Shown: in pieces, positions 236 to 16,374 of the stretch
How the letters are laid out: every line of letters begins with the position of its first letter
How positions within the stretch are numbered: the stretch's first letter is position 1
Assembly: GCA_946887385.1 (NCBI GenBank)
Contig: CAMPKU010000066.1
Coordinates: 1-18,115, forward strand
Direction: 5' to 3'
DNA from: an uncultured Gammaproteobacteria bacterium
Lineage (GTDB): Bacteria > Pseudomonadota > Gammaproteobacteria > Rariloculales > Rariloculaceae
Length of the DNA: 18,115 nt
Program-made: the position numbers and the translations under genes
The notes under the pieces: model-generated
Told to the model about the DNA's origin: nothing
What the model saw: the letters and a program-made list of their open reading frames with translations, nothing else
Database searches by the model: none

Positions 236-1600
236 CTAATACGTGGTGCCGCGGTGCGCGTCGTCGTGCATTTTGATGAAGAAGGAGCGCAGCGCGGGCT
301 CGGCTTCGGCTGCGGTCATGAGCCGTTGCTCGACGATGAGGGTTGCCATGTCCTTGATCGAGCGGCGGCCGTCGATCAGTGACATCAGGAAGGCGTGGAT
401 GCGCGTCGCGGCGGCTTGGCTGCGGAACGCGTCGCTGAGCGGCACGGGATCGGTGCCGCGTACGAGCCATTCCGGTAGCGCTTGATAGCGGGGCACTTTT
501 TTCGTCTCGCGCTGTTTGCTGGCCGACCAGCTCACGATGTGCTCGCGGCGCGCGTGCCGGCTCGCCGGCGAGCTCAAGTACGGAATCTCGTGCTCTTCGA
601 TCACGACGTCGTCGAAGCCGCTCTCGGCCAAGGCGGCGCGGCATTCGTCGACACCGTAGCGCGCGGCGGGGTCCGGGTCGTGGAAGCTCAGCGAGCCGAA
701 GTTGAGCCAGCGGCCGCCGTCGGCGAGCAATGTGTTGATGCGGGCGCAGAGCACGTCGAAGTGCTCGGGTAGGATGTCGACGAGCCAGGGCGTGACCACG
801 GTGTCGAACGCGCCGCGGCGAAATGGGGGGCGGAGGGCATCGCCCAGCACATGAACGAGGCCGGGCCGCGCCGCAGCCGGCGCGGCGAGCGTACGCAACA
901 AAGCCGGCTCGGCGCGCGGTGCGAGGGGAAATTCGTACAGCTCGAGCGTCGAGCCGCGGCTTACGGTGTCCGCGACGATCGCGAGCAGAGGGTTGAAGTC
1001 GAGCGCGACGGTTGTCGCCGCGTTCGTTCGCATGTGCAGGTCGTAGGCGAGGCGGCCGGCGCCGGCGCCGAGCACGAGCGTGCGGTTCGGCGGGGCAGCG
1101 CGCAGCGCGGCTTCGAGGGCGGTGAACGAGGCGTCGTTCTCCGCAGCGCCCCAGCACCAGTCGCGATGGATGTTGGCGTGATAGGTCGTCAGGCCTTGAT
1201 CCGCAGGCAGCCGCGTTCGAAGCGCGAGATAAGTTTCGTAGCTCGACGCGCGTTGCTCGAGCTCGAGCGGCGCGAGCAATGCACGCAGGCGCGCGGCGTG
1301 GTCGCGCGTCGCGTGCTCGAGGCTCTCGAGCCGAGCGCGCGTGGCCGCACGCAGCGTCGAGCTCGTGAGCGCCGCAGCCAGTTGTTGTCGGTCGCGTTCG
1401 AGCTTTTGCAGCGAGAAATGCAGGCGGCCGCGCCATTCGCCGAGCGCTGCATTCGGCTCCGCGAACAGCCATGGGAGACCGGCCACGTGCGGGAAGTCGA
1501 CGCGGCAGCCCGCGCACCGCCAAGCGCCGTCGCCGTCGGCGAGCGGCGCGTCGCAGCGCGGGCAGGCGAGCAGATCGTGGAAGTCTGACGGTGCGCTCAT
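236..1600 (-). CDS. SAM-dependent methyltransferase with N-terminal zinc ribbon (Trm112/N2227-like)
   Basis: A 454-residue protein. Residues 8-32 form a Trm112-like zinc ribbon with Cys13, Cys16, Cys29 and Cys32. A helical, Arg/Leu-rich stretch follows (60-130). The Rossmann methyltransferase domain starts near residue 173 with SAM motif I (VLGAGAGRL). An acidic end to the next strand (ALDFNP) and the HVLGDALRPPF segment fit later SAM motifs. The spacing and the WGAAENDASF stretch before motif I recall N2227/carnosine N-methyltransferase-like proteins, but the substrate cannot be read from sequence. Residues 400-445 look like a small PqqD-like or winged-helix tail (LIDGRRSIKDMATLI). The start at 1600 has no good Shine-Dalgarno, but the zinc ribbon begins normally from it. 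The gene is transcribed on its own, since a terminator at 1699-1748 isolates it from the operon upstream. Confidence 0.8.
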   Translation of the reverse strand: MSAPSDFHDLLACPRCDAPLADGDGAWRCAGCRVDFPHVAGLPWLFAEPNAALGEWRGRLHFSLQKLERDRQQLAAALTSSTLRAATRARLESLEHATRDHAARLRALLAPLELEQRASSYETYLALRTRLPADQGLTTYHANIHRDWCWGAAENDASFTALEAALRAAPPNRTLVLGAGAGRLAYDLHMRTNAATTVALDFNPLLAIVADTVSRGSTLELYEFPLAPRAEPALLRTLAAPAAARPGLVHVLGDALRPPFRRGAFDTVVTPWLVDILPEHFDVLCARINTLLADGGRWLNFGSLSFHDPDPAARYGVDECRAALAESGFDDVVIEEHEIPYLSSPASRHARREHIVSWSASKQRETKKVPRYQALPEWLVRGTDPVPLSDAFRSQAAATRIHAFLMSLIDGRRSIKDMATLIVEQRLMTAAEAEPALRSFFIKMHDDAHRGTTY

Positions 1601-1796: not shown

Positions 1797-3461
1797 CTAA
1801 GCGATCGGAGCGAACGCCACGTACCGCTCGAGTAACGAAGCGTCGCCGAGGCCGTGGTTCGGGAACCGCGACTCGAACAGGCCTAGATCCCCGTTCAGCG
1901 CCATGTAGTTCAAGAGCAGCATGTGGACGAGCAGGTTCACGTTGTTCGCGCCCGGCGTGCCGGAGCGTACGACGTTGCCGTCTGCGGAGAAGGCGCCGAG
2001 CTGCTGGTGTTGCGCGGCCGTGAGATTGGCGCTCGTGAGCAGCTGCGGGCGCCCACCCAGCGCGGGCGGGTTGTAGACCAGGAAGAACGGCGCCGCCGTG
2101 TCCTGGTTGTCACTGGTCCATTCGCCCTTGCCGCGGCCGGCCTGCGAGTTGTCGATGACGCCGTTGCTCGAGAGCGAGCCGTCGCTGAACACGTAAAGCA
2201 TCACGGGCCTATCCATGCGCGCGGCATACTCGAGGATCGCGCCCATGCAGCGGCCCGCACGGAAGTCCTTCGTCTCGCCTTCTTGGCGCATGCCGCCGTG
2301 GTAGTCGTACCCGCCCATCGTGATGCAGCCGGCGCCCGCGTAGCCGTCGATCACCATCTTCATGACCGACGCCGTCTTGCGGAACTCGTTGCCGTCCGTG
2401 CCGCCCGCCGTGAACTCCGCATCGGTGAAGATGCCCGTCGGGCCGACGATGTTCGGGTCCGTGGCCGGGTTCAGCACCACATTGCCGAATTTTTCCTTCG
2501 TGTAAGCGGCGTCGAGATAGCCGCACTTGACGAGCTCTTCGACCACCTGGTCGCGCGTGATCGGCGCTTTCACCGGGTCCACGAAGTTCAATCCCGTCGA
2601 GACGTTGTTGTCCATCCGCTCCTTGCTGAGCCGATAGATCGCCTCCATCACGGCAACCTCATCCTGGTGGCTCAGCCGCTTGGGCCGATCGCTCGTGCCG
2701 ACGAGCCCCGTCACATCGCTCGGCCGGTCGACCTTCGTGGGCCGGAACTCGGCGTTGAGCATCATGGCCGGCGCCATCGAATTGCCGCCCGAATCCGTGT
2801 TCTGCGAGCCGATCAACGTGAGGATGGAGCCCTCGGCGCCCGCGCGCTGAATGCCGTAGAGCGGATTATGCGGGTTGTTGCTCGTGTCGTTTTCGGAGCG
2901 CGCGGGAATCACCGCGCCGTTGACGTTTGCCGCGATGCCGGCGGTCTTGAAGCTCTGGTACATGCCGCGCAGGAATGCGCTGTCGCTGTGAAACGCAAGC
3001 CCAAGGCTCGTGTCCGTGTGGTCGCCGTTGCTCGTGCCCGTAGCGCTCGCGGCCGCTTCCACGACGCCGGGCACCTGATCGCCCGGCAAGCCGAGCTTGC
3101 GATAGCCGGCCGTCGACAGCGTGTCGAGCTGGCCGAGCTCGCCGCCCCGGCCGACGAGCACGTTCGAGCCCGCAATGTTGGCACCGCCCGCGAGGTCGAT
3201 GCAGATGAACGGGATCTTGGTGCCTGATCGGTCGATGCCGCAGCCGAGCGCGCTCGCGTCCAGCGCCAAATCCTCCGCGAGCTGGGCCAGGGCCGTACGC
3301 GGATTCGCGAACAGACTGAACAATCCGGTGGACAGCACCGCCGCGCCGCCGGTCATGAAGCCTTGCGCGATGAGCTCGCGTCGAGTCATCGGACGGCGAT
3401 GGTTGTCGTGCCGTTGGGGCGCGTCGGGGTTGCGCAGCTTGCGTTTGACTCTGATGAGCAT
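1797..3461 (-). CDS. DUF1501-family protein with Tat signal
   Basis: A 554-residue protein. Residues 26-60 form a twin-arginine signal (MTRREL at 25-30, Arg27-Arg28, then a hydrophobic stretch to about 50 and an AxA-type site near 58-60), so it is probably exported folded. The mature part starts with the segment FICIDLAGGAN at about 85 followed by SNVLVG, then TAGYRKLGLPG, FRAGRCMGAILEYAARMDRP and YVFSDGSLSSNG. I recognise these as the DUF1501 family, related to the alkaline-phosphatase/sulfatase superfamily and sometimes wrongly labelled GspF. In planctomycetes DUF1501 proteins are encoded beside cytochrome-domain proteins, and here too the two upstream genes encode c-type heme proteins. Start 3461 is supported by GAGG 8 bases upstream; the internal Met25 lacks a ribosome site. 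It lies 28 bases after the LamG cytochrome gene and is the last gene of the operon. Its reaction is unknown. Confidence 0.85.
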   Translation of the reverse strand: MLIRVKRKLRNPDAPQRHDNHRRPMTRRELIAQGFMTGGAAVLSTGLFSLFANPRTALAQLAEDLALDASALGCGIDRSGTKIPFICIDLAGGANIAGSNVLVGRGGELGQLDTLSTAGYRKLGLPGDQVPGVVEAAASATGTSNGDHTDTSLGLAFHSDSAFLRGMYQSFKTAGIAANVNGAVIPARSENDTSNNPHNPLYGIQRAGAEGSILTLIGSQNTDSGGNSMAPAMMLNAEFRPTKVDRPSDVTGLVGTSDRPKRLSHQDEVAVMEAIYRLSKERMDNNVSTGLNFVDPVKAPITRDQVVEELVKCGYLDAAYTKEKFGNVVLNPATDPNIVGPTGIFTDAEFTAGGTDGNEFRKTASVMKMVIDGYAGAGCITMGGYDYHGGMRQEGETKDFRAGRCMGAILEYAARMDRPVMLYVFSDGSLSSNGVIDNSQAGRGKGEWTSDNQDTAAPFFLVYNPPALGGRPQLLTSANLTAAQHQQLGAFSADGNVVRSGTPGANNVNLLVHMLLLNYMALNGDLGLFESRFPNHGLGDASLLERYVAFAPIA

Positions 3462-3489
3462 GATCGTTACCTCAATTCCGAAGCGCGAA

Positions 3490-6090
3490 TCACTGGATCA
3501 GCATCGCGGCGCTGCCGAACACGGCTGCGCAGGCGGCCTTTGCGATGTTGCGCGTGCGAGCCGCGTCATTCGCCTCTCCCGCGGGGACGGCGTTCAGCAG
3601 GCCGGGGCGCGCCGCATCGGTCGGATGGCCGTGGATCAGCTGGCTGAGCTCCGCACGAGCCACGTTCTTGTCGGGCTGATGTGCAAGCTGGGTTACGCCG
3701 AGCGCGCGATCGAGCAGCGGATCGAACAGCGCATTCTCGTTGGCGAACGCCGCTGCCGGCGGAACGCTGAAGTCGAAGCCCTGGAACGTGGCAGTGCGCA
3801 GCGTCGGGTTCTCCATGAGCGCGTGGCAGTACTCGACCGCGAGCTGGCCGATCGCGGCCTGGTGCGACGACACGTAGGCCTCGATGGACGGGGTGGCCGG
3901 CAGCGATTGCCGCACCTCGTCCACGGCCGCGCGCACGCCCGGCTCGTTCTGGCTCACGCCCGTGAGCTCGGCGATCGTGGCGCTGATCTCATCGAACGTG
4001 CGTACGCCGATCGCGGATGCCGGCGGCAACACTTGCGGCGGCGACGCCGATGGTGTGATCGGCGCCGGCCGATTGAAGGTGTTGGCACCCAGTGCGTCGA
4101 ACGTCAGGAAGAACTCGTCCTCCTCGGGGCCTTTCTCGAGCGGCAAGACCGTGCCCAGATTGAGCAGCGTCTGCCCCGTCTCGGGGGTATACGCAGCGCT
4201 CGTGATCTCGGTGTCGAGGTACGCGAACGCTTGGCCGACGCGCGCCTCGGCGCCGTTCAACCCTACGCGCATGCCGCGCACGTCGATGCCGTCGGGCAGA
4301 GCCGTGCCGTCCAAGCTGATGAAGAACGGCTTGCGGAACAAGTAGCCGTAGCTGTCGAACTGCGCGGCCTCGATCACGATGAAGCTGTCGTTGACGTTCG
4401 TGAGCTCTTCTACGCCGAACATCAGGAAGAACTTCTCACCGACGCCGGCTTCGAAGTTCTGCACGATCTGCTCGGTGGTCAGCTCCCGGTTGTGAATGGC
4501 GACGAGACGAATCACGCCGTTCCACATGCGGTTGCCCGACACTTCGTTGCCGAGCACGAACGCATACGAGTTGTCCCAGTTCGTCACGGTGCCGCCCGGT
4601 ACGGGATCGAGCGACGCGGCGAGCACGCCGTTCACGTAGATCTTGCGGCCCGTGACGGGATGGAACGTGGCCACGACGTGCTGCAGCGTGGCTTGTAGCA
4701 CCTCGGCGGCGTCGGGCGTCGACAGCTGCGGATCGCCGTTCGCGCTGGTGAGATCGGTGCGGTTGAAGAAGTCGTAGTTGTACATCGTCTGGCCGAGATT
4801 GAAGTTGCGGTTCGTCAAGCTCGCCGAATAGCTGACGATGCGCATGTCCTCTTGCACCACGTTGCCGGGCGTGACCCACGCCTCGATGGAATACTCGCCC
4901 GTTTGCAGCACGAGCTCCTTGAGCTTCGCACTCGAGCCCGTCGAGGCTTGTGCCTTGCCGCCGGCGAAGTTGAGGCCCCAGCCGCCGAACCATTGCACGT
5001 TGCCCGACAGCGTCAGGTCCATCGCCGGGTTCACGCCGCTAGTGTCGTACGCGATCGAGCATGCGCCCGTGATCGACGTGCCGCAGTCTTGGCCCGTCTT
5101 GAATTCATAGAGCGCGATGACGCTCGCCTCGTGGCGATTGCCGCCCGACGCAATCGTACCTTCGTAAAGCGTGGTCGCCTTGCTGGTGATCAAGCTCGGA
5201 TCGACGGACGTCGGCGTCACGCCGGCGCTGAACTGCTGAATCGCAGCCTGCATCATGTTCGCGTCGTTGGTGCAGCTGGCGGTCCAGCAGTTGTGCGACT
5301 CGTTACGCAAGCGCACCACGAAGCGCGAGATCGCGGGATCGTCGAGATTGATCTTCGACTTCGCGGCTTCGTAGGCGAGCTCGATCGCCTCGAGGTCGCC
5401 CAGCGGGCCTTCGGCAAAAAACGGCTGCTGCTTGACGGCCGTCGTCGAGGCATGACAGTTGGAGCAGTGCTCCTCGAGCAGCGGATACACCGTCGACGAG
5501 AACAACGCGCCTTGATCGGCGGGGAAGTTCTTGCTTTGACCGGGATCGCGGAGCACGGGCGGCTCGAGCTCGATTTTGCGCGCGGCAGTGGAAGCCAGTC
5601 CGCCGGCCCAGTTCGTGATCCAGGTGGTCAAGATGTCGCCGCACGCCGCACCGCTGGCGAGCCAGCAGTTGTGCCCGCCGCCCACCTTCGTGACCATCAT
5701 CGAATCTTGCGGGGTCGTGAGCGTCACGACGCCGTTGGCGGCCGAGTACGCCAAGTTGATGTCGTCGCTGCGAGCGAACATCGGCGTTTGCCCGCCTGCT
5801 TCGCTGTGGCACGAGCCGCAGCGATTGTTCGCCTGGATGTTGTCCCAGAGGTTGAGCTTGAACTGCTGCACGTCCTGCGTCGAAGGCGCCGGGCCGTTGT
5901 AGTTCGACGTGGGGCCGCCGCCCGGCAATCCCGGGTTCTGTAGAACGTCTGCGCCGCTGCCGCCGCTGCACGCGGCGAGCGCGAAAGCGGCCAGCGTTAC
6001 GCCGGCGCCGAGCAGGCGCTTGCGGAGCGCCGAGCTCTGCGCGGCGGCCGGAGCCGGCGACTCGAGCGAAACTTTGGTTGCGTACGGCAT
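3490..6090 (-). CDS. Diheme c-type lipoprotein with LamG/ConA-like domain
   Basis: An 866-residue protein. Residues 1-41 form a lipoprotein signal (lipobox LAAC, Cys41). There are two heme sites, CGSCH (91-95) and CSNCH (209-213). Each is followed some 40-60 residues later by the same HNCW motif and another cysteine, so the N-terminal half looks like a duplicated heme module. Residues of about 300-555 form a LamG/concanavalin-like jelly roll: YEF, YSIEAWV, KIYVNG, the WNGVIRLVAIHNREL strand, and the closing EQIVQNFEAGVG. The C-terminal 300 residues are unassigned. Start 6090 is preferred to the in-frame ATG at 6111 because AGGGAG lies 8 bases before it and the signal is compact; the longer form adds 7 residues. 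It begins 25 bases after the monoheme cytochrome gene. Likely role: an outer-membrane or periplasmic electron carrier with a carbohydrate- or protein-binding module (inference). Confidence 0.87.
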   Translation of the reverse strand: MPYATKVSLESPAPAAAQSSALRKRLLGAGVTLAAFALAACSGGSGADVLQNPGLPGGGPTSNYNGPAPSTQDVQQFKLNLWDNIQANNRCGSCHSEAGGQTPMFARSDDINLAYSAANGVVTLTTPQDSMMVTKVGGGHNCWLASGAACGDILTTWITNWAGGLASTAARKIELEPPVLRDPGQSKNFPADQGALFSSTVYPLLEEHCSNCHASTTAVKQQPFFAEGPLGDLEAIELAYEAAKSKINLDDPAISRFVVRLRNESHNCWTASCTNDANMMQAAIQQFSAGVTPTSVDPSLITSKATTLYEGTIASGGNRHEASVIALYEFKTGQDCGTSITGACSIAYDTSGVNPAMDLTLSGNVQWFGGWGLNFAGGKAQASTGSSAKLKELVLQTGEYSIEAWVTPGNVVQEDMRIVSYSASLTNRNFNLGQTMYNYDFFNRTDLTSANGDPQLSTPDAAEVLQATLQHVVATFHPVTGRKIYVNGVLAASLDPVPGGTVTNWDNSYAFVLGNEVSGNRMWNGVIRLVAIHNRELTTEQIVQNFEAGVGEKFFLMFGVEELTNVNDSFIVIEAAQFDSYGYLFRKPFFISLDGTALPDGIDVRGMRVGLNGAEARVGQAFAYLDTEITSAAYTPETGQTLLNLGTVLPLEKGPEEDEFFLTFDALGANTFNRPAPITPSASPPQVLPPASAIGVRTFDEISATIAELTGVSQNEPGVRAAVDEVRQSLPATPSIEAYVSSHQAAIGQLAVEYCHALMENPTLRTATFQGFDFSVPPAAAFANENALFDPLLDRALGVTQLAHQPDKNVARAELSQLIHGHPTDAARPGLLNAVPAGEANDAARTRNIAKAACAAVFGSAAMLIQ

Positions 6091-6115
6091 CGTCCTCACT
6101 CCCTGGTGCATGGGC

Positions 6116-7318
6116 CTATTGGCCCATGCAATACCCTGCGGCGTTGGCGAACACCTGCTTCAAGTCGTAGGCGCCGCGAAACGCATTGGTCATCGTCTCG
6201 ATCTGGCTGTGATCGTTCGCGTCGACGGGGTCGCGCAGGCACACGGCCTTGAACACCTTCTTTACCTGGCATTGCGCGAAGGCGTCCGTGGCCGCGAGCT
6301 CCGCGCCCATGGATTTGGCTCCCGTGCCTTCGCCCGGCAGCGTTTGACTCCAGCCGATCACGGCGTTCTGGCCTTCGCGCCAGTGGTTGTGCCAAGAGTC
6401 ATCCGGCGTTACGAAGCCGTCGGCAAACGTGGCGTCGTTGTTGAAGTACTTCGAATGCACCGACGTCGAGTCGTAGACCATGCGGTTCGACGTGGTGTCG
6501 AAGTTGTAGTAGGCGAAGGCCTGGGCCAGCGGATCCATGCCCGCATGGCAGCCGATGCAGTTGTTGTTGAACACGCGGCTGTCGCCGCCCGGGCTGCGCG
6601 ACACGTCTTGTCGGATGCGATCGGGCGCGATGCTCGTATCGAGCACCTGCTCCAAGTCCATGCACATGTGATTGATCAGCGTGAAGCGAAACATCGCGCG
6701 GTTCGTGCCGGCCACGAAGAACGCCTCCGCCGCGGCACGCGTGGTCATCGCGCCCGCAGTGGCCGCAGGAGGCGTGCCGTAGACCGCCGTCTGCGTCGTC
6801 TGCACGAGCTCGTTCTGATTGAAGCTCGGCTCGCGCATGCGCTCCTCGAGCGCCTCGTAGTGCGCGTTGCTCGTTGCCGACGGCGCGGGCGTCACGCTAC
6901 CGGGCCCCGTGTACAGCAGGTCGGTGGTCAAGATCTCATTGAACGGTACGTTGTCGCGCACCATGCCCATGACGAGCGTCACATAGTCGTTGAGCGGCAC
7001 GAACGGGTTCTGATCGCGGTTCGTCCACGGCGCCGCGAAATTCTTCAGCGTGACGGCGTAGAAATTCGGGTTGCTCATCGCAATGCTGGCTGCCGCCGTC
7101 GGATTGGCGGGCAGCGACGCTTGCATCGCGTTCAACGTGGCTTCGTCGGCGGGCACGCCGGCAAGGCGATCGTGAATACGGGCGGCTTGCTCGCGCGGTC
7201 CGGCCAGTGCGATCGACACGCTGCAAAGGAGCAGCGCAAGCGCAACGAAGATGCGCCACAACCAAACATGGCTATCGATAAGCGCGAACGTCGGCGGAAA
7301 GTGCATCCTGCTAATCAT
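6116..7318 (-). CDS. Monoheme cytochrome c-like protein, DUF1588-like
   Basis: A 400-residue protein. Residues 18-39 form a hydrophobic Sec signal (cleavage near ALAG). The single heme site CIGCH (254-258) is followed by AGMDPLAQAFAYYNFD. This closely resembles the CxxCHxxxDPxGfalexfD pattern of DUF1588-type cytochrome modules in planctomycetes (known family). Upstream, FRFTLINHMCMDLEQ and RDDVS-type segments recall the DUF1592 region that precedes DUF1588. Cysteines at 350, 360 and 397 may form disulfides. It is the first gene of the minus operon. ATG 7318 has only a weak GGGA element about 8 bases upstream, and ATG 7306 is a possible alternative. It probably passes electrons to or from the diheme LamG lipoprotein encoded 25 bases downstream (inference). 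Confidence 0.82.
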   Translation of the reverse strand: MISRMHFPPTFALIDSHVWLWRIFVALALLLCSVSIALAGPREQAARIHDRLAGVPADEATLNAMQASLPANPTAAASIAMSNPNFYAVTLKNFAAPWTNRDQNPFVPLNDYVTLVMGMVRDNVPFNEILTTDLLYTGPGSVTPAPSATSNAHYEALEERMREPSFNQNELVQTTQTAVYGTPPAATAGAMTTRAAAEAFFVAGTNRAMFRFTLINHMCMDLEQVLDTSIAPDRIRQDVSRSPGGDSRVFNNNCIGCHAGMDPLAQAFAYYNFDTTSNRMVYDSTSVHSKYFNNDATFADGFVTPDDSWHNHWREGQNAVIGWSQTLPGEGTGAKSMGAELAATDAFAQCQVKKVFKAVCLRDPVDANDHSQIETMTNAFRGAYDLKQVFANAAGYCMGQ

Positions 7319-7375
7319 CGCGATCGTCCCGTTGAGTGATGGCCAGAAGTACGAGATCGGGGCGCACTAAAACAC

Positions 7376-7428
7376 AAAAAAAATCGTCGCGTAATGTGGG
7401 AAATCACAGACGTCTGGGTTTAGCGACG
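7376..7428 (-). terminator. Terminator- or attenuator-like hairpin in the leader of the minus operon
   Basis: Seen: CGTCGC at 7385-7390 pairs with GCGACG at 7423-7428, extended by TA/TA across a bulged G at 7391 (8 bp, 27-base loop). On the minus strand the stem is followed by A and then eight T residues (7376-7383). The loop carries the perfect palindrome CAGACGTCTG (7407-7416). It sits 58 bases before the start of the monoheme cytochrome gene, so it could be an attenuator if transcription starts upstream of it. The long loop makes it weaker than the terminator at 1699-1748. Confidence 0.35.
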
Positions 7429-7469
7429 GTTTCGGAAGGAGCGTAGTCGACGTGTAAGCTCGTCGCGGT

Positions 7470-7500
7470 GATCGAGAGCAACGTTCGAACGTGCTCGATC
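7470..7500. promoter_or_regulatory. 31-base dyad, candidate operator
   Basis: Seen: GATCGAG (7470-7476) and CTCGATC (7494-7500) are inverted, and they flank the perfect 12-base palindrome ACGTTCGAACGT (7481-7492). The arms are offset by a few bases relative to the inner palindrome. The site lies inside the divergent region, about 150 bases from the minus start and 320 from the plus start. A dimeric regulator site is plausible, but no regulator gene is in the window. Confidence 0.4.
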
Positions 7501-7525
7501 GCCAAGTAGTGCGATTAGGTGAAAT

Positions 7526-7545
7526 CTCGCGCGACGCCGCGCGAG
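7526..7545. repeat. GC-rich hairpin in the divergent region
   Basis: Seen: CTCGCGCG (7526-7533) pairs with CGCGCGAG (7538-7545) around a 4-base loop. There is no T-run on either side, so it is not a clear terminator. It may be a structure in a leader transcript or a DNA site. Confidence 0.45.
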
Positions 7546-7711
7546 TGAAGGGTGACGAGTAGGGACGTCCGTCACACTTCTCGCGGCGAGGTGATCCGGG
7601 CAAGTTCTGTGATCACGTTAACGGACGGCGTACATCTCGATGCTCATGATTGTCGGGCGCCGAGATTACGTCGCATCGCGACGCGAGCCGTCGCGAGATT
7701 ATGCAAGCACG

Positions 7712-7732
7712 GCGAGCAGGAAAACTGCTCGC
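7712..7732. repeat. Hairpin upstream of the HzsA-like gene
   Basis: Seen: GCGAGCAG (7712-7719) pairs with CTGCTCGC (7725-7732) around the loop GAAAA. It lies 85 bases before the start codon of the plus operon and is probably in its 5' leader. No T-run follows. Confidence 0.45.
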
Positions 7733-7817
7733 AGCGCTGCGTTCGGAGTAACCGTTGACGTATCGACTTCAGCTCGGATCGGCCCTCACCGCGCCACTTG
7801 ATGGAGAGGGACCTTCC

Positions 7818-10517
7818 ATGAGCAACGAAACAGCGAACGTTTGGCGAGCCTGGCTGCGACACGGCCGCGTGGCCGCGCTCGCATTGACGATGGCCGCTGT
7901 GGCCGCGTGCAGCGGCGACGGCGACGGCAGCGTGGGCATCGGCACGGGCCAGGATCCCGATCCGGTAGCGCCGGATTTTCCGATCGCCTACACGAAGGGC
8001 CCTCTGCTTGACGAGGACGAAGAGCTGCAGATCAACACCGACTTGCGCGACATTCAGCGCTTCGCGGTGGGTACCGATCTTTACGTGCGCGACCGCGCTT
8101 CGCCGACGGCGCCCGAGCGCAACGTCACCGAGCGCTTCACGGAAGGCTCCGGCGACGTGATGGGCGTGGAGATCTCGACCGACGGCACCAAAGTGTTGTT
8201 TGCGATGCGCGGCCCGGTGGACGAGAACCTGGCGCTCGACGACGAAGATCAACCCAAGTGGAACATCTGGGAATACGAGCTCGCCACGGACACGCTGCGG
8301 CGGCTCATCGTGTCGGATCTCACGGCGCAGCAAGGCCACGACATCTGGCCGCACTACTTGCCGGACGATCGCATCATTTTTGCGTCAACGCGGCAACAGA
8401 CGGCGAAAGCCATTCTCTTGAACGACGGGAAGCCGCAGTTCGACGCACGCGACGAAGATCGTCAGGAGCCGGCGTTCGTGCTGCACGTGATGGCCGATGA
8501 CGGCCGCGATGAGTTCAAGCAAGTTTCGTTCAACCAGAGCAGCGACTACGACCCCACTGTGCTCGACAACGGCAAGGTGCTGTTCAGTCGTTGGGATCAC
8601 GCGGGCAACGTCAACGGCATTCATTTATATCAGATGAATCCCGACGGCACGGAGCTCGAGCTGCTGTACGGCGCCGAGAGCCATTTGACGGGCACGAACA
8701 ACGGCGCCGTGCAGTTCGTGAGCGCACGCCAGATGCAAGACGGCCGCATCATGGCAATCTTGCGGCCGTTCGATCATCCGGAGCTCGGCGGCGCAATTAC
8801 GATCATCGACACGCCCACCTACGTCGAGAACACGCAGCCCGTGGCGAGCTCTGCGGGCATGGGCGGGCCGGCACAGACGGCAGCAACGCCGAACGTCGTG
8901 CGTACCGACCTGGTGCCGTCGCAGGGCGGCCGGTTCAGCTCCGCGTTCCCGCTGTGGGACGGCACGGGGCGCGTGTTGACCACGTGGTCCATTTGCCGGC
9001 TCGAGGAGCCGGATCCTGACGATCCCGCGGCCGTGATCTACGTGCCTTGCACGGAGGAGCGCCTTGCGGCCACGGATCCGGCGCCTGTCGTTGCGCCGCC
9101 GCTCTACGGCGTTTGGATGTACGACCCCACCACGCAGACGCAGCAACCGATCGTGATCGGCGAAGAGGGCGTCATCGTGGCGGACGTCGTGGCCGCGCAG
9201 CCGCGCCGCGCGCCCATGAGCATTCCGGACAAGCTGCCCGGCGTCGACTTCGACGCCGACCTTGCGGCCGAGGGAGCCGGCATCATCAACATTCGCAGCG
9301 TTTACGACTTGGACGGGGTGGCGAGCGTCGATATCGCCGCCGTGGCCGATCCGGTGCAAACGCCGCCCGCGAATCGCTCCGCGCGCTTCTTGCGAATCGA
9401 GAAAGCGGTGGCCATTCCCGACGAAGACACCGTGGATCTCGAGAACACGGCGTTCGGCCCGAACATCCAGCAAGGGATGCGCGAGGTGATCGGCTATGCG
9501 CCGATCGAGCCAGACGGCTCGGTGCGCGTGAAAGTGCCCGCAAACGTAGCCCTTGCGATCAGCGTGCTCGACGCGAACGCGCGGCGCACATCCGCGCGGC
9601 ATCAGAATTGGCTGCAAGTGGTGCCCGGACAAGAGCTCACCTGCAACGGCTGTCACGCGCCGGCGAGCAATCTGTCGCACGGCCGCAGTACGGCGTTCAA
9701 TGCCGCGTATGCGGGCGCGGCGAGCACGGGCGTTTCGTTCCCGAACAGCGTGAGCACGTTTTCGCCAAATGCCGGCGACACGATGGCCCAAACGCGCATT
9801 CGCGCGATTTGTGGTAACGCGACCGATTGTGCGGCGCTCGAGCCCAGCGTCGACGTGATCTACCGTGACGTTTGGACGGACTCGGCGGTTGCGACGCCCG
9901 GTGCGGATATCGATTTTCTGTATGGCAGCCTGACGACGACGGCGCCGACGAATGCCAACTGCATGAGCGCCTGGACGCCGGCCTGCCGCGTGATCATCAA
10001 TTACGAGATGAACATTCACCCATTGTGGAATACGCCGCGGCTCGTGCTCGATGGCCTGGGTAACCAGATCGGCGACAACACATGCACGCGCTGCCACGCG
10101 CCGGTCGATGTCGCAAATGCGAACGTGCCGATGGTGCCGGCGGGTCAGCTCGATCTCACCGACGGACCGTCGGAGGACGAGCCCGATCAGCTCAAGGCCT
10201 ACCGCGAGCTTCTGTTTGCCGACAACCGCCAGATCTTGAGCGGCGGCATGCTGACCGACGAGCAAGTATCGATCGGTACGGACGAGATGGGGAACCCGAT
10301 CCTCGCTCCGGTTTCGGTTGGGCCCTACATGAGCTCGGCGGGCGCCAATTTCGGCCAATCGCGGCGCTTCTTCGATTGCTTCGAAGGCGAAAACGGCGTC
10401 TGCGCCGCGACGCCGCACATCGGCAACCTGTCGCTGCACGAGTTGCGCCTGATCGCCGAGTGGCTCGACATCGGCGCGCAGTACTACAACAACCCGTTCG
10501 ACGTGCCGGTGATGTAG
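7818..10517 (+). CDS. HzsA-related diheme lipoprotein (beta-propeller plus cytochrome c)
   Basis: An 899-residue protein. Residues 1-31 form a lipoprotein signal (AVAAC, Cys31). The N-terminal part has TolB/PD40-like propeller blades: ISTDGTKVLFAMR, WNIWEYELATDTLRRL, HDIWPHYLPDDRIIFAS, IHLYQMNPDGTELELL. The C-terminal part holds two heme sites, CNGCH at 609-613 and CTRCH at 756-760. This order matches proteins named HzsA-related after the hydrazine synthase alpha subunit. No HzsB/HzsC partners are present, so hydrazine synthesis is not implied. ATG 7818 is chosen because GGAGAGGG lies 7 bases before it and it starts the signal peptide directly; an in-frame TTG at 7755 is less likely. It is the first gene of the plus operon and its stop abuts the next ATG. 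Confidence 0.87.
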   Translation: MSNETANVWRAWLRHGRVAALALTMAAVAACSGDGDGSVGIGTGQDPDPVAPDFPIAYTKGPLLDEDEELQINTDLRDIQRFAVGTDLYVRDRASPTAPERNVTERFTEGSGDVMGVEISTDGTKVLFAMRGPVDENLALDDEDQPKWNIWEYELATDTLRRLIVSDLTAQQGHDIWPHYLPDDRIIFASTRQQTAKAILLNDGKPQFDARDEDRQEPAFVLHVMADDGRDEFKQVSFNQSSDYDPTVLDNGKVLFSRWDHAGNVNGIHLYQMNPDGTELELLYGAESHLTGTNNGAVQFVSARQMQDGRIMAILRPFDHPELGGAITIIDTPTYVENTQPVASSAGMGGPAQTAATPNVVRTDLVPSQGGRFSSAFPLWDGTGRVLTTWSICRLEEPDPDDPAAVIYVPCTEERLAATDPAPVVAPPLYGVWMYDPTTQTQQPIVIGEEGVIVADVVAAQPRRAPMSIPDKLPGVDFDADLAAEGAGIINIRSVYDLDGVASVDIAAVADPVQTPPANRSARFLRIEKAVAIPDEDTVDLENTAFGPNIQQGMREVIGYAPIEPDGSVRVKVPANVALAISVLDANARRTSARHQNWLQVVPGQELTCNGCHAPASNLSHGRSTAFNAAYAGAASTGVSFPNSVSTFSPNAGDTMAQTRIRAICGNATDCAALEPSVDVIYRDVWTDSAVATPGADIDFLYGSLTTTAPTNANCMSAWTPACRVIINYEMNIHPLWNTPRLVLDGLGNQIGDNTCTRCHAPVDVANANVPMVPAGQLDLTDGPSEDEPDQLKAYRELLFADNRQILSGGMLTDEQVSIGTDEMGNPILAPVSVGPYMSSAGANFGQSRRFFDCFEGENGVCAATPHIGNLSLHELRLIAEWLDIGAQYYNNPFDVPVM

Positions 10518-11261
10518 ATGCGGTGGGTGCTGCTCGTTCTGTCGCTAAGCCAGCTCGCCATCGCAACTGAAGCGACAGGCGCGGAACGGCAGTCGCGCGA
10601 GGTAACGATTGCAGATCCGTACATCGAGCTGCACACGGGGCCGGGGCGCGGCTACCCGATTTTCTTCGTAGCTGAACGCGGCGAGGCGATCGCGCTCTTG
10701 AGGCGGCGCACGGAGTGGTTCCAGGTGCGCGTGGCGCGGGGTCAGGAAGGCTGGGTGCACTTCGAGCAGCTCACCACCACGTTGAATCCCGACGGCGAGC
10801 CGTTCGATTTGCCGGCGCTCGGTTTCAGCGACTACGCGGCGCGACGCTGGGAGGTGGGCGCGTTGTACGGCGACTTCGGCGGCGCCAATGTCATCGGCGC
10901 GTATGGCTCGCGCAGCTTCACGCCCAATCTGTCGGGCGAGATGTGGGTATCGCAGGCGCTGGGGCGTTTTTCCGACAGCACGATGGCCACCGTGAACATC
11001 GTGCATCTCATGTATCCGGACTGGCGTGCGTCGCCGTATTTCACGCTCGGCGCGGGCGTCATCAAAACCGAGCCCAAGGCCACGCTCGTGGCGACCACGG
11101 ATCGCACGGATTCCATGGCGCTGGCGGGCGCCGGCGTGCGTGTGTATCTGACTCGCCGTTTCGTGTTCCGCGCCGAGTACAAGGCTCACGTGGTGTTCAC
11201 GAGCCGCGACGACAACGAGGAAGTAAGTGAATGGAAAGCAGGCTTCTCGTTCTTTTTCTAG
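10518..11261 (+). CDS. SH3-domain protein with C-terminal outer-membrane beta-barrel
   Basis: A 247-residue protein with a signal peptide (1-22). A bacterial SH3 domain spans about 28-90 (YIELHTGPGRGYPIFFVAERGE, then WFQVRVARGQEGWVH). From about 108 to the end there are alternating amphipathic strands finishing in FSFFF, typical of an outer-membrane barrel of about eight strands. The ATG directly follows the stop of the HzsA-like gene with no strong ribosome site, which suggests translational coupling. The barrel part resembles the next protein (WEVGALYGDFG against FEVGIFAGQIS; both end in FFF). The SH3 part may bind peptidoglycan or a partner lipoprotein (inference). Confidence 0.82.
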   Translation: MRWVLLVLSLSQLAIATEATGAERQSREVTIADPYIELHTGPGRGYPIFFVAERGEAIALLRRRTEWFQVRVARGQEGWVHFEQLTTTLNPDGEPFDLPALGFSDYAARRWEVGALYGDFGGANVIGAYGSRSFTPNLSGEMWVSQALGRFSDSTMATVNIVHLMYPDWRASPYFTLGAGVIKTEPKATLVATTDRTDSMALAGAGVRVYLTRRFVFRAEYKAHVVFTSRDDNEEVSEWKAGFSFFF

Positions 11262-11890
11262 CTCTCACGCTCGGCGTCGGGAGCTTGACGGGCTGCGGCC
11301 GCGATCGGCTGGTGCGCGCGGACGACTCGGGCCAGCCGCCCGTGATCGAGCCCGACGTGGAGCGGCGTGAGATCGAGCCGGCGAGGATCGATACCGAGGA
11401 CTTCGAGGTAGGCATCTTCGCGGGCCAGATCAGCGTCGAGGACTTCGGCGTGAACACGGTTGCCGGCGCCCGGTTTGCGTACCACGTGACGGAAGGGTTT
11501 TTCGTGGAGCTTGCCGCGGGCAAGGCGGATACGGAGCTCACGAGCTTCGAACGTTTGAGCGGCGCTGCGCAGTTGCTCACAGACTCCGAGCGCGAGTATT
11601 CCTACTATAACGTGTCGCTGGGCTACAACATTTTCCCCGGCGAGCACTTCATCGGTCGACGGCGGGCGATGAACACGGCTACCTACGTCATCGGCGGCGT
11701 CGGCAAGACCTCGTTCGCGGGCGACGATCGGTTCACCGTGAACTTCGGCTTGGGGATGCGGCTCATGCCGCTCGACTGGCTCGCGGTTCATGCCGACATC
11801 CGCGACCACGTATTCGACATCGATTTGTTGGGGCAGGAGAAGACGTCACACAACCTCGAGGCGCATCTAGGCGTCACGTTCTTCTTCTAA
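11231..11890 (+). CDS. Outer-membrane beta-barrel protein with lipobox
   Basis: A 219-residue protein. The N-terminus reads as a lipoprotein signal (LTGC, Cys22), which is unusual for a barrel. An acidic/Pro linker follows to about 55, and then amphipathic strands such as FEVGIFAG, GARFAYHVTEGFFVELAAG, YYNVSLGYNIF and WLAVHADIRDHVF, ending in GVTFFF. It overlaps the previous gene by 31 bases. GAGGAAG about 8 bases before the ATG supports this start. It is probably paralogous to the barrel half of the SH3 protein. It may instead be a short periplasmic beta-sandwich, but the terminal FFF and strand pattern favour the outer membrane. Confidence 0.8.
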   Translation: MESRLLVLFLALTLGVGSLTGCGRDRLVRADDSGQPPVIEPDVERREIEPARIDTEDFEVGIFAGQISVEDFGVNTVAGARFAYHVTEGFFVELAAGKADTELTSFERLSGAAQLLTDSEREYSYYNVSLGYNIFPGEHFIGRRRAMNTATYVIGGVGKTSFAGDDRFTVNFGLGMRLMPLDWLAVHADIRDHVFDIDLLGQEKTSHNLEAHLGVTFFF

Positions 11891-11912
11891 GGCAAGACTC
11901 GGGAGGTAACCA

Positions 11913-12404
11913 ATGTTGCGCGCATTCTCGGTTCTGGCGTTGACCACTCTCGTCGCATCCCTCGCGTGGGCCGCCGCGGTGTCGGGCCCGGCGCCCGGCT
12001 TTACGCTTCAGTCGCGCGACGGAGCGCAGGTGTCGCTTGCCTCGCAGAAGGGCAACGTCGTGATGATCAACTTCTGGGCCACCTGGTGTGTGCCCTGCCG
12101 CCAAGAGATGCCGCACCTGCAAGCGCTCTACGAGCGTTACAGCAGCCTCGGGTTCGAGCTGCTCGCCGTCAACGTCGAGAAGAACAATGCCGAAGGCGCT
12201 CGCAAGTGGCTCGAAGAAACACCCGTGACGTTTCCCGTGCTGTTCGATCCGAACAACGAGGTCACCAAGCTATACAAAGTGCAGACCATGCCCACTACGG
12301 TGCTGATCGGGCGGGACGGCACGATGCGGTTCATTCATCACGGCTACAAGCCGGGATACGAGAACGACTACCAGACGCAAGTGCGCGCGCTGCTGCGGGA
12401 GTAA
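11913..12404 (+). CDS. TlpA-like thioredoxin-fold thiol oxidoreductase
   Basis: A 163-residue protein with a signal peptide (1-21) and a thioredoxin fold. The active site is WCVPC (Cys59, Cys62) inside MINFWATWC, with the usual RQEMPHL helix after it. The cis-proline segment is TMPTTVLIG, followed by GTMRFIHHGY. The family acts in the periplasm and usually keeps cysteines reduced, for example for heme attachment or metal-site assembly. GGGAGG about 6 bases before the ATG supports the start. It lies 22 bases after the barrel gene and 4 bases before the DUF4266 gene. In this operon its substrate could be the CXXCH sites or the cysteine tail of DUF4266 (inference). Confidence 0.92.
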   Translation: MLRAFSVLALTTLVASLAWAAAVSGPAPGFTLQSRDGAQVSLASQKGNVVMINFWATWCVPCRQEMPHLQALYERYSSLGFELLAVNVEKNNAEGARKWLEETPVTFPVLFDPNNEVTKLYKVQTMPTTVLIGRDGTMRFIHHGYKPGYENDYQTQVRALLRE

Positions 12405-12408
12405 CGGC

Positions 12409-12651
12409 ATGGCTGCAACGAAGGCATCTTCGATTTTGCGCGCCGCCGCGGCGGCGGGAGCAGTGCTCGCGCTCTGCGCATGCAGTATCGAGCCGTGGGT
12501 GAAGCCTTACGAGCGCGACAACCTCGCCGACCCGATCATGTCGTTCGACCGCGATCCGGTCTCGACGTCGTATACCGGGCACGTGCACGAAGCGCGCGAA
12601 GGCGCGCGGGGTGCCACGGGCGGGGCAGGCGGCGGCTGCGGCTGCAACTAA
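12409..12651 (+). CDS. DUF4266 mini-lipoprotein with C-terminal CGC tail
   Basis: An 80-residue protein. The lipoprotein signal ends at LCAC (Cys25), followed directly by the DUF4266 signature: SIEPWVKPYERDNLADPIM, with SFDRDP after it. The rest is a flexible Gly/Ala-rich stretch ending in GGGCGCN, with Cys77 and Cys79 at the very C-terminus. The mature protein is only about 56 residues. GGGAG inside the end of the tlpA gene serves as ribosome site, with a 4-base gap. From memory, this family is encoded next to DUF3570, a thioredoxin-like protein and often ApbE. The Cys-Gly-Cys end could bind a metal, heme or a disulfide partner; the neighbouring TlpA would suit that. The function is unknown. 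Confidence 0.9.
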   Translation: MAATKASSILRAAAAAGAVLALCACSIEPWVKPYERDNLADPIMSFDRDPVSTSYTGHVHEAREGARGATGGAGGGCGCN

Positions 12652-12664
12652 CGTTTAAGCTCGA

Positions 12665-13798
12665 ATGAAGCGCCGTCTCGCAATCGCTCTACTGTGTATG
12701 GCCGCCGTGCGCGCCGGCCACGCGGGCGTGTTGCCCGAGGATCGCGCCGACGTTTTGCTGCACTCGTACGACGGCGGCGGCGTCACGATTCAGGGCCCGT
12801 CCGTGCTGGTGCGCAAGCAGTTCGCGCAGAAGTTCTCGGTGTCCGCCAACCACTACATCGACCGCGTCAGCAGCGCGTCGATCGACGTGGTAACGACGGC
12901 GAGCCCATACAAAGAAGAGCGGACGCAGAACTCCGTCGGTCTCGACTATCTCCACGACCGGTGGATGATGAATATCGGGTTGACGAAGAGCGAGGAGAAC
13001 GACTACACGGCCGAAACGTTCAGCTTCGGCTTGAGCCAAGACCTCTTCGGCGATTTGACCACGGTCTCGCTCGGCTACTCGCTCGGCGACGACACGGTGA
13101 GCCGGCGCGGTGACGCCACGTTCAGCGACGCCGTCGAGCGGCAGCAGTACCGGCTCGGTCTATCGCAGATCCTGACGCGGAATCTGCTGCTCGGGCTGTC
13201 GTTCGAGTCGATTACGGACGAAGGCTTCTTGAACAATCCGTATCGGCAAGTGCGCTTCATCGACACGACCACACCGGCCGGTTATAGCTACGAGCATGAA
13301 ACATATCCGCGCACGCGCACGAGCGACGCTGCTTCCATTCGGATGCGCTATTACCTGCCGTATCGCGCAGCCCTGCACGCGGAGTATCGCCAGTACGCCG
13401 ACACCTGGGACATCCAGGCGGACACCTTCGAGCTCGGCTACACGCATCCAATCGAATCCGGCTGGACGATCGAAGGCAAGCTGCGGTCGTACGCGCAGAC
13501 CAAGGCCGATTTCTACAGCGACTTGTTCTCGCGCTCGCAGTTTCAGAATTTCATGGCGCGCGACAAAGAGCTCAGCACGTTCTCGAGCACTACGGTGCGC
13601 TTGGCCGCAAGCTACGACATCGTGCGCGGCGGTTGGAAGTTCGTGGAGCGCGGCACCCTCAACGTGATCCTCGACCACATGATGTTCGACTACGAAAACT
13701 TCCGCGACTTACGCGGCACCGGCGCCGTGCCCGGCAGCGAGCCGCTGTACAGCTTCGACGCCAACGTCGTCCAAGTCTTCGTCTCCTTCTGGTTCTAA
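12665..13798 (+). CDS. DUF3570 outer-membrane beta-barrel protein
   Basis: A 377-residue protein with a signal peptide (1-20). It matches the DUF3570 family along its length: LHSYDGGGVTIQGPSVLVRK, SANHYIDRVSSASIDVVTT, ASPYKEERTQNSVGLDY, FGDLTTVSLGYSLG, SQILTRNLLL, DEGFLNNPYRQVRF and ARDKELSTFSS. Many aromatic amphipathic strands and the final FVSFWF indicate an outer-membrane barrel. It is the last gene of the plus operon, 13 bases after DUF4266, with a weak ribosome site. Its likely partner is the DUF4266 lipoprotein. The stop codon TAA is the first part of a repeat copy (13797-13815). No strong terminator is visible in the 22 bases before the convergent moeA. Confidence 0.92.
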   Translation: MKRRLAIALLCMAAVRAGHAGVLPEDRADVLLHSYDGGGVTIQGPSVLVRKQFAQKFSVSANHYIDRVSSASIDVVTTASPYKEERTQNSVGLDYLHDRWMMNIGLTKSEENDYTAETFSFGLSQDLFGDLTTVSLGYSLGDDTVSRRGDATFSDAVERQQYRLGLSQILTRNLLLGLSFESITDEGFLNNPYRQVRFIDTTTPAGYSYEHETYPRTRTSDAASIRMRYYLPYRAALHAEYRQYADTWDIQADTFELGYTHPIESGWTIEGKLRSYAQTKADFYSDLFSRSQFQNFMARDKELSTFSSTTVRLAASYDIVRGGWKFVERGTLNVILDHMMFDYENFRDLRGTGAVPGSEPLYSFDANVVQVFVSFWF

Positions 13799-16330: not shown

Positions 16331-16374
16331 AAAAGGGGACATCTGGTCCCCATAAATAAATCCGTCCCCTTTTT
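16331..16374. terminator. Shared convergent terminator carrying repeat copy 2
   Basis: Seen: AAAAGGGGAC (16331-16340) pairs perfectly with GTCCCCTTTT (16364-16373), with A and T flanks that give T-runs on both strands, so it can end transcription both ways. A competing inner stem GGGGAC/GTCCCC (16335-16340 with 16346-16351) lies inside. Read on the minus strand it begins AAAAGGGGACGGATTTATTT, sharing 14 bases with copy 1 at 13797. The minus-strand M48 stop codon (16373-16375) lies at the stem end. Confidence 0.75.

What the first reader, a model, noticed from the sequence alone, without database searches (positions are those of the whole stretch)
1797..13798. Nine-gene divergent envelope redox locus joining DUF1501/cytochrome genes with the TlpA-DUF4266-DUF3570 set
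Two operons share one control region. One encodes a monoheme DUF1588-like cytochrome, a diheme LamG lipoprotein and a Tat-exported DUF1501 protein. The other encodes a diheme HzsA-like lipoprotein, two small barrels, TlpA, DUF4266 and DUF3570. Nearly every product is predicted to be exported, most to the outer membrane. All CXXCH motifs in the window (five) fall here. The arrangement suggests one complex or pathway for outer-membrane or surface redox chemistry. The reaction is not known to me.
Basis: partly seen in the sequence, partly recalled or inferred. Interest (0 to 1): 0.75.

Follow-up and report, generated by a model that had tools for sequence, protein, structure and literature searches.

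The report
Conserved redox locus partnering envelope motor
A block of nine genes for heme-, thiol- and possibly flavin-carrying cell-surface proteins is kept together in many environmental bacteria and goes with genes for a proton-driven envelope machine resembling the myxobacterial gliding motor, which suggests a testable role for that machine outside gliding bacteria.

Summary
In detail: nine genes (1797-13798), two divergent operons, five CXXCH motifs. A scan seeded with the HzsA-like gene found 53 related loci; 31 hold all nine genes, in the same order and strands in 31 of 31. The locus goes with something larger. Of 24 host genomes tested, 24 carry ApbE and 24 a GltC-like TPR gene. That gene lies in a cassette X2-GltC-GltD-GltE-s108-ExbB-ExbD-ExbD-TonB, complete in 20 of 25 genomes read, with the make-up of the Agl-Glt 'core complex', of unknown role in Gammaproteobacteria. 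In 12 genomes it follows DUF3570. DUF3570 here is a subfamily whose first ApbE site reads Dxx[S/T]xA[S/T], usually with Ser for Gly. Best reading: a surface electron-transfer module of an Agl-Glt-like, proton-driven envelope machine. The genetic unit and the Glt association are shown; flavin, electron flow and physical coupling are inferred. The DUF1501 label is supported by fold only.

The parts
236..1600 (-). SAM methyltransferase-like protein (CARME-like, possibly a Trm112-like zinc ribbon at the N-terminus); probable tenth gene of the lower operon
   Evidence: Pfam CARME 5.4e-9, Trm112p 0.029; homologue left of the DUF1501-like gene in 16 of 54 loci, window included and beside the unlinked triplet in G068 (L112)
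1797..3461 (-). DUF1501-like exported protein, twin-arginine signal, alkaline-phosphatase superfamily fold
3490..6111 (-). diheme LamG lipoprotein
   Evidence: PF13385 1.4e-21; lipobox-like in 42 of 42, two CXXCH in 41 of 42
6116..7318 (-). monoheme exported protein, weakly PSCyt3/PSD2-like
   Evidence: one CXXCH in 44 of 44 full-length relatives; at E up to 0.5, PSD2 in 14 of 17 and PSCyt3 in 11 of 17
7319..7817 (.). divergent intergenic region (499 bp) shared by the two operons
   Evidence: gap of 141-1111 bp, by the start codons chosen in the script, between the same two divergent genes in 50 loci
7818..10517 (+). HzsA-like diheme lipoprotein with N-terminal beta-propeller
   Evidence: PF18582 in 17 of 17 relatives; top fold match hydrazine synthase alpha 5c2v, E 2.6e-24; two heme motifs in 46 of 46 counting CX3CH/CX4CH, lipobox-like in 43 of 46
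10518..11261 (+). SH3 domain plus small beta-barrel
   Evidence: SH3_3 7.9e-7 and OMP_b-brl 3.5e-6, the latter just under its cut-off
11231..11890 (+). outer-membrane beta-barrel, OMP_myx_plus (overlaps the gene before it by 31 bp)
   Evidence: TIGR04565 163.4 bits, cut-off 60
11913..12404 (+). TlpA/ResA-type thioredoxin-like protein (WCVPC)
   Evidence: PF00578 3.3e-30
12409..12651 (+). DUF4266 small lipoprotein with C-terminal CxC
   Evidence: PF14086 2.2e-23; C-terminal CxC in 38 of 39; GGGCGCN invariant in 17
12665..13798 (+). DUF3570 outer-membrane protein, short subfamily; degenerate ApbE sites at residues 69-72 (SSAS) and 77-80 (TTAS)
   Evidence: PF12094 4.7e-46; motif columns in 50 proteins of this type against 14 aligned canonical DUF3570

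Best explanation
The locus encodes the outer-membrane and surface redox module of a proton-driven trans-envelope machine of the Agl-Glt kind. Shown: the nine genes form a conserved divergent unit; each of 24 host genomes tested also has an ApbE flavin transferase and a GltC-like gene, and where the region of that gene was read it nearly always begins a TPR-ExbB-ExbD-ExbD-TonB cassette, which in 12 genomes follows the DUF3570 operon. Inferred: TlpA passes electrons to the CxC of DUF4266 and on to FMN placed by ApbE on the DUF3570 barrel, then to the hemes of the HzsA-like and LamG lipoproteins at the outer membrane (or in reverse), while the ExbB/ExbD/TonB motor and TPR proteins couple the proton-motive force to assembly, positioning or opening of that platform. 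The cytochrome/DUF1501 triplet is an optional partner of the platform.
For: 31 of 31 complete loci identical in order and strand. 274-genome table, Fisher p 2e-20 to 2e-31, not corrected for kinship: HzsA-like 39, DUF3570 71 (38 shared), GltC-like 50 at E<1e-20 (36 shared). 24 of 24 host genomes with ApbE and with a GltC-like hit. Cassette complete and in order in 20 of 25 genomes read; of the 12 of those 24 hosts that are among the 25, 10 complete and 2 cut by a contig end. Domains tested on one or two cassettes: MotA_ExbB 1.1e-29, ExbD 1.3e-16 twice, TonB_C 5.6e-4 but under its cut-off, AgmX/PglI C-terminal domain (PglI is GltG and AgmX is GltJ in the table) 61.5 and 61.9 bits over a cut-off of 40. 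In two TlpA-less loci whose Glt clusters I read (L005, L017), a close TlpA sits in the Glt cluster (E 4e-60 and 2e-59). First DUF3570 site: Asp kept in 48 of 50, Ala-Ser in 48 of 50, at the columns of the canonical site; a Gly-to-Ala change in such a site was reported to leave about 50% flavinylation (PMC12052999, passages). Heme alphaII ligand His772 of HZS aligns with an invariant His. Pairwise distances of HzsA-like and DUF3570 correlate at 0.82, LamG and DUF3570 at 0.75 (shared ancestry not removed).
Against: No ApbE and no Glt gene lies in the window; in the window's nearest host genomes (G001, G002) ApbE is on contigs other than the Glt cluster and the barrel genes. The window's flavin sites read SSAS and TTAS, not [S/T]GA[S/T], so flavinylation may be lost; the first site is gone in 2 of 50 and the second is looser (first letter Ser/Thr in 33 of 50). 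An inner-membrane electron donor (DsbD, NapH-like) was not searched for. In G152 and G080 the motor genes do not follow the TPR genes in the stretches read. 7 of 39 genomes show no DUF1501-like gene. Distances of the DUF1501-like protein barely correlate with those of SH3-barrel, OMP_myx and TlpA (0.20, 0.11, 0.09). G043 has a complete cassette but none of the nine genes in the stretch read and was a miss for HzsA-like, DUF1501-like and DUF3570; 14 of 50 genomes with GltC-like lack an HzsA-like gene, so the motor does not require the module. ApbE is common (7 of 14 unrelated control genomes) and its rate in the 274-genome sample was not measured.
Confidence: 0.5

Rival explanations
1. The machine is a Tol-Pal- or Nfs-like envelope or surface-polymer transporter, and the hemes, thiols and alkaline-phosphatase-fold protein are enzymes acting on the transported surface material rather than an electron chain.
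For: The best NCBIfam match of the one AglR-like protein tested is TolQ; a GltD-like protein passes the tol_pal_ybgF cut-off in Hahella (137.5 over 90.1 bits) though not in G013 (70 bits); the HzsA-like model also matches TolB, from rank 7; LamG is lectin-like; Nfs with the Agl motor moves a polymer on the Myxococcus spore surface (PMC3858216, passages).
Against: Does not by itself explain ApbE, DUF4266 and TlpA; the TolQ match is far under its cut-off (66 against 221 bits).
Confidence: 0.27
2. Surface locomotion or adhesion: a gliding-type machine with heme proteins as accessory parts.
For: Cassette resembles the Agl-Glt core; OMP_myx_plus barrel.
Against: The 2011 study found the core not sufficient for motility and gliding undocumented in most hosts (PMC3169522, passages). 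Adhesin or polarity genes were not searched for.
Confidence: 0.1
3. The two halves and the Glt cassette are neighbours or co-occur only through shared ancestry.
For: Co-occurrence p-values ignore kinship; the halves separate in some genomes; some distance correlations across the halves are near zero.
Against: 31 of 31 order conservation although the DUF1501-like proteins are down to 38% identical to the window's; the association with GltC-like genes survives physical separation; a close TlpA is found in the Glt cluster where the locus lacks it.
Confidence: 0.06
4. The HzsA-like protein performs hydrazine-synthase-like nitrogen chemistry.
For: Whole-length fold match to HZS alpha.
Against: NCBIfam HZS alpha model 36.8 bits against a cut-off of 800, and no other HZS subunit named among the NCBIfam matches of the nine; no Tyr at the Tyr591 position in 17 of 17.
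Confidence: 0.02

Closest known systems
Agl-Glt core complex of Gammaproteobacteria (Luciano et al. 2011, PMC3169522)
   Same: The linked cassette has the same make-up: TolQ/ExbB-type motor, two ExbD, TonB-like GltG, three TPR proteins, extra genes, in one cluster
   Different: The word cytochrome does not occur in that paper's main text, and it places gltA/gltB-type genes only in Myxococcales and Bdellovibrionales; here a barrel pair and redox genes go with the cassette
ApbE-DUF3570-thioredoxin-DUF4266 clusters (Meheust et al. 2021, PMC8238504)
   Same: DUF3570, DUF4266 with C-terminal CxC, and a thioredoxin-like protein side by side; ApbE in each of 24 host genomes tested
   Different: Short DUF3570 subfamily, Gly of the flavin site mostly Ser, added HzsA-like/SH3-barrel/OMP genes, divergent cytochrome operon, Glt linkage; 16 canonical regions read in the same class carry TlpA in 15, DUF4266 in 12, ApbE in 15
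Hydrazine synthase alpha subunit and its HZS_alpha homologues (PMC12758564)
   Same: Propeller, middle heme domain, C-terminal heme domain; His772 equivalent kept
   Different: No Tyr591; lipoprotein; gene partners differ; that paper's main text has no occurrence of Gammaproteobacteria or Pseudomonadota
Tol-Pal system
   Same: TolQ-like motor, ExbD/TolR, TonB-like transducer, YbgF-like TPR, TolB-like propeller on an envelope protein
   Different: Hemes, thiols, possible flavin; matches mostly below family cut-offs
Planctomycete-type PSCyt/PSD cytochrome plus DUF1501 gene pairs (recalled)
   Same: A PSCyt3/PSD2-like cytochrome near a Tat-exported protein of alkaline-phosphatase fold
   Different: Profile matches weak or absent; three-gene form with a LamG lipoprotein

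Membership tests
Agl-Glt core complex | ExbB-type motor, two ExbD, TonB-like transducer and TPR proteins in one cluster | tested here: met
   For the linked cassette, not the window: complete in 20 of 25 genomes read; 3 cut by region or contig end, 2 without motor genes beside it; Pfam/NCBIfam on one or two cassettes
Agl-Glt core complex | present in the window itself | tested here: not met
   No Glt, Agl or ApbE match in the window
Agl-Glt core complex | sequence orthology to M. xanthus GltC/D/E/G and AglR/Q/S; SH3-barrel and OMP_myx proteins as GltB/GltA | not testable with these tools
   I found no way to fetch M. xanthus sequences; only NCBIfam hints (AgmX/PglI domain, TIGR04565)
ApbE-DUF3570 flavinylation module | DUF3570, DUF4266 with CxC, thioredoxin-like protein clustered | tested here: met
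ApbE-DUF3570 flavinylation module | [S/T]GA[S/T] sites in DUF3570 | tested here: not met
   Window SSAS and TTAS; among 50 of this type the first site reads SSAS in 31, SGAS in 13, TSAS in 2, SAAS and TAAS in 1 each, lost in 2. Lowers the claim of membership, not of working alike
ApbE-DUF3570 flavinylation module | ApbE in the gene cluster | tested here: inconclusive
   Not in the window; in the flank of 8 of 54 loci; in 24 of 24 host genomes, in G001 and G002 on other contigs
Hydrazine synthase alpha | equivalog model score | tested here: not met
   36.8 bits, cut-off 800
Hydrazine synthase alpha | Tyr591 ligand of heme alphaI | tested here: not met
   Ser in 12 of 17, no Tyr in 17
Hydrazine synthase alpha | His772 distal ligand of heme alphaII | tested here: met
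   Invariant His in 17 of 17 aligned to chain position 745, i.e. 772 with the offset fixed by His587
DUF1501 (PF07394) | Pfam profile match | tested here: not met
   No DUF1501 match in 17 members
Alkaline-phosphatase superfamily (clan of DUF1501, recalled) | superfamily fold | tested here: met
PSCyt3/PSD2 cytochromes | profile match | tested here: inconclusive
   Window protein E 0.07 and 0.11; PSD2 in 14 of 17 at E up to 0.5, best 1.6e-5

The most novel reading that the evidence does not exclude
The ancestral, non-gliding job of Agl-Glt machines in Gammaproteobacteria is redox at the cell surface: a proton-driven ExbB/ExbD/TonB-TPR complex works with a heme- and flavin-bearing outer-membrane platform (HzsA-like, LamG, DUF3570), a kind of energised extracellular electron-transfer device not yet described.
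Probability: 0.3. Interest if true: 0.87.

Novelty: new variant of a known kind. Interest (0 to 1): 0.72.

Why it matters
The Agl-Glt core was reported in 2011 as a conserved Gammaproteobacterial complex of unknown function (PMC3169522, passages), and DUF3570 in 2021 as a flavinylated protein whose electron transfer is of uncertain function (PMC8238504, passages). The linkage found here joins the two and adds heme lipoproteins. It gives a concrete, testable hypothesis for both open questions; three of the loci are in records not marked as MAGs (Hahella sp. HN01, Marinobacter xestospongiae JCM 17469, Pleionea sp. CnH1-48). In the library searched, one paper mentions DUF3570 or DUF4266; in the listings I saw of searches on Agl-Glt, HZS_alpha, DUF1501 and related terms no title or abstract start joins these parts. 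Supplementary files could not be read.

Tried and rejected
Hydrazine synthase membership rejected on the family score and the missing Tyr591. 'Neighbours only' rejected on order conservation and co-occurrence. PDB sequence searches with the DUF1501-like, GltC-like, OMP_myx, DUF3570 and monoheme proteins gave no usable relative. The window's own genome is not held. The HzsA-like model is only moderate (pLDDT 66.5, pTM 0.50), so its lower-ranked matches are hints; the DUF1501-like model has pLDDT 73.3. Foldseek gave no E below 0.001 for the DUF1501-like model; the fold claim rests on VIA, a second look at Foldseek's own list. A first regex for the two flavin sites failed on 49 of 50 sequences and was replaced by counting alignment columns. 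A regex for two nearby [S/T]GA[S/T] sites in canonical DUF3570 found one of 16 regions. One of three protein database searches and one paper search were left unused.

Rows dropped before counts: three weak HzsA hits (G090, G225, G253) of 42 genomes and 14 weaker GltC hits (E>1e-20) of 64 genomes; two of 16 canonical DUF3570 had gaps at the motif; L069 was dropped as a duplicate of L039; partial proteins were left out of the motif counts. The class sample asked for 300 genomes and got 274, of unstated completeness, so 'absent' may mean missing from a draft. The hosts of only 24 of the 53 loci were searched for ApbE, TIGR04565 and GltC. HzsA was the seed of the locus scan, so loci of the other half alone could not be found by it; the 274-genome searches were run to balance this. 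The 25 genomes were picked by hand and all had GltC hits.
Full report

IT IS A CONSERVED UNIT. A genome scan with a 13-row HzsA-like alignment gave 53 loci. Most are MAGs labelled Gammaproteobacteria or groups within it, some only Pseudomonadota or Proteobacteria, three Rhodospirillaceae, Rhodospirillales and Burkholderiales; three records (Hahella, Marinobacter xestospongiae, Pleionea) are not marked as MAGs. All nine genes are found in 31 loci, with identical order and strands in 31 of 31; of the other 22, three (L005, L011, L017) lack TlpA although the contig goes on (L011 also starts inside the HzsA gene), and the other 19 are cut by contig ends. Lipoprotein signals, heme motifs, the twin-arginine motif and the C-terminal CxC of DUF4266 are conserved. 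The HzsA-like protein has two heme motifs in 46 of 46 full-length cases if CX3CH/CX4CH is allowed.

In 274 Gammaproteobacteria drawn from the class of the Hahella genome, HzsA-like occurs in 39 (after dropping three weak hits), DUF1501-like in 35, both in 32; DUF3570 occurs in 71 and covers 38 of the 39. Among the 39, DUF1501 is divergent at 4.0-4.8 kb in 23, adjacent on the same strand in 1, far away on the same contig in 3, on another contig in 5, not found in 7. Of the three genomes with DUF1501 but no HzsA hit, G059 (L110) has the rest of both operons and only the HzsA-like gene is undetected; G025 is a short contig-end match. In five stretches where DUF1501 is not beside an HzsA-like gene (L111-L115), monoheme-LamG-DUF1501 travels as a triplet, 5 of 5. 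So the halves co-occur strongly and yet are separate modules. Fisher values (2e-20 to 2e-31) do not correct for kinship.

THE LARGER PARTNER. Clustering of flanking ORFs over 54 loci (window included) showed recurrent neighbours: a TPR protein of about 640 aa (22 loci), a protein of about 200-250 aa here called X2 (22), a TPR lipoprotein of about 960 aa (19), a second TlpA (15), the methyltransferase also seen in the window (16), and ApbE (8). Reading on, these belong to a cassette X2-GltC-GltD-GltE-s108-AglR(ExbB)-ExbD-ExbD-GltG(TonB), complete and in order in 20 of 25 genomes read; three are cut by region or contig ends, and in G152 and G080 the motor genes do not follow. The names Glt/Agl are given by make-up: the 2011 study describes a core complex of AglR, AglQ, AglS, GltC, GltD, GltE, GltG plus an additional gene in Gammaproteobacteria, function unknown (PMC3169522, passages). 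Sequence support on the one or two cassettes tested: MotA_ExbB, ExbD twice, TonB_C under its cut-off and the AgmX/PglI C-terminal domain above its cut-off. Of 24 host genomes of the nine-gene locus, 24 have a GltC-like hit and 24 have ApbE; 12 of these hosts are among the 25 read, 10 with the whole cassette and 2 cut by a contig end (G003, G023). In 12 genomes DUF3570 is followed by the X2-GltC genes (G018, G019, G023, G068, G080, G104, G117, G150, G163, G181, G268, G292; in G104 ApbE lies between). In the closest relatives of the window (G001, G002) the cassette is on another contig, preceded by TlpA, with no ApbE in the stretch read. In G003 and G006, whose nine-gene loci lack TlpA, a close TlpA lies in the Glt cluster. 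GltC-like genes without HzsA also exist (14 of 50 genomes), so the motor does not require this module.

FLAVIN SITE. ApbE modifies DUF3570 at two [S/T]GA[S/T] motifs (PMC8238504, passages). Canonical DUF3570 regions from the same class (16 read) carry ApbE in 15, TlpA in 15 and DUF4266 in 12. In an alignment of 50 DUF3570 of the present type with 14 canonical ones, the first site falls in the same columns: 31 SSAS, 13 SGAS, 2 TSAS, 1 SAAS, 1 TAAS, 2 lost; the Asp three residues before is kept in 48. The second site is looser: 23 TTAS, the rest varied, with Ser/Thr at the first place in 33. The two losses are G041 and G080; in the stretches read, G080 shows no TlpA, DUF4266 or ApbE beside it and G041 no DUF4266 or ApbE, which fits coupling, though n is 2. 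A review reports that Gly-to-Ala in the site lowers flavinylation to about 50% while loss of the acceptor abolishes it (PMC12052999, passages). Flavinylation here is therefore plausible, not shown.

HZSA-LIKE PROTEIN. Its model matches hydrazine synthase alpha over its length (E 2.6e-24). The heme-alphaI motif aligns, but Tyr591 is absent in 17 of 17; the His772 ligand of heme alphaII aligns with an invariant His. Homologues reported earlier in other phyla lacked His772 (PMC12758564, passages). The propeller also resembles TolB.

INTERPRETATION. The cofactor motifs (five heme sites, TlpA, CxC, possible flavin), lipoprotein anchors and barrels point to an outer-membrane redox platform; the linked cassette points to a proton-driven machine spanning the envelope. 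I give 0.5 to the reading that the first is the surface module of the second and that electrons run through it. A transporter of surface material with redox enzymes is the main rival (0.27). Distances between loci fit a bond between HzsA-like, LamG and DUF3570 (0.63-0.82) but not between DUF1501-like and the small barrels or TlpA (0.09-0.20). No experiment or expression data were available.

NOVELTY. New variant of a known kind: each part has a known relative; the combination was not seen in the listings and passages of the papers I could search (most subscription papers are not held).

Noticed in passing
window 236-1600 (-): Methyltransferase-like protein with a weak Trm112-like match; a PqqD-like C-terminus was recalled by eye, not tested. 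Recurrent neighbour of the DUF1501 triplet.
   Followed up: partly
window 13821-15020 (-): MoeA, adjacent to DUF3570; its cluster in the flank comparison holds only the window, L001, L003 and L051, so probably not part of the locus.
   Followed up: partly
window 15617-16327 (+) and 16373-17920 (-): A TonB_C-domain protein and an M48 peptidase with TPRs and, by eye, a lipobox.
   Followed up: no
L001, L003, L013, L024, L045 and others (HzsA-like second heme): The second heme motif is CX4CH instead of CXXCH in many relatives (19 of 53); the window has CXXCH.
   Followed up: partly
L103 (Hahella genome G018, contig C47): A second, complete Glt cassette about 25 kb from the first, which lacks motor genes beside it.
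   Followed up: partly
L012, L013, L014, L016, L020, L022, L024, L031, L045, L047, L048, right of DUF3570: A SYLF/Ysc84-like protein (named by eye) follows DUF3570 in these 11 loci.
   Followed up: no
L004, L009, L051: MAGs labelled Rhodospirillaceae, Burkholderiales and Rhodospirillales carry parts of the locus; mis-binning or transfer not tested.
   Followed up: no
G038, G060, G067, G125, G208 (DUF1501-like matches): One stop is reported inside the DUF1501-like match in five places; possibly match ends running past the gene's own stop, not checked.
   Followed up: no
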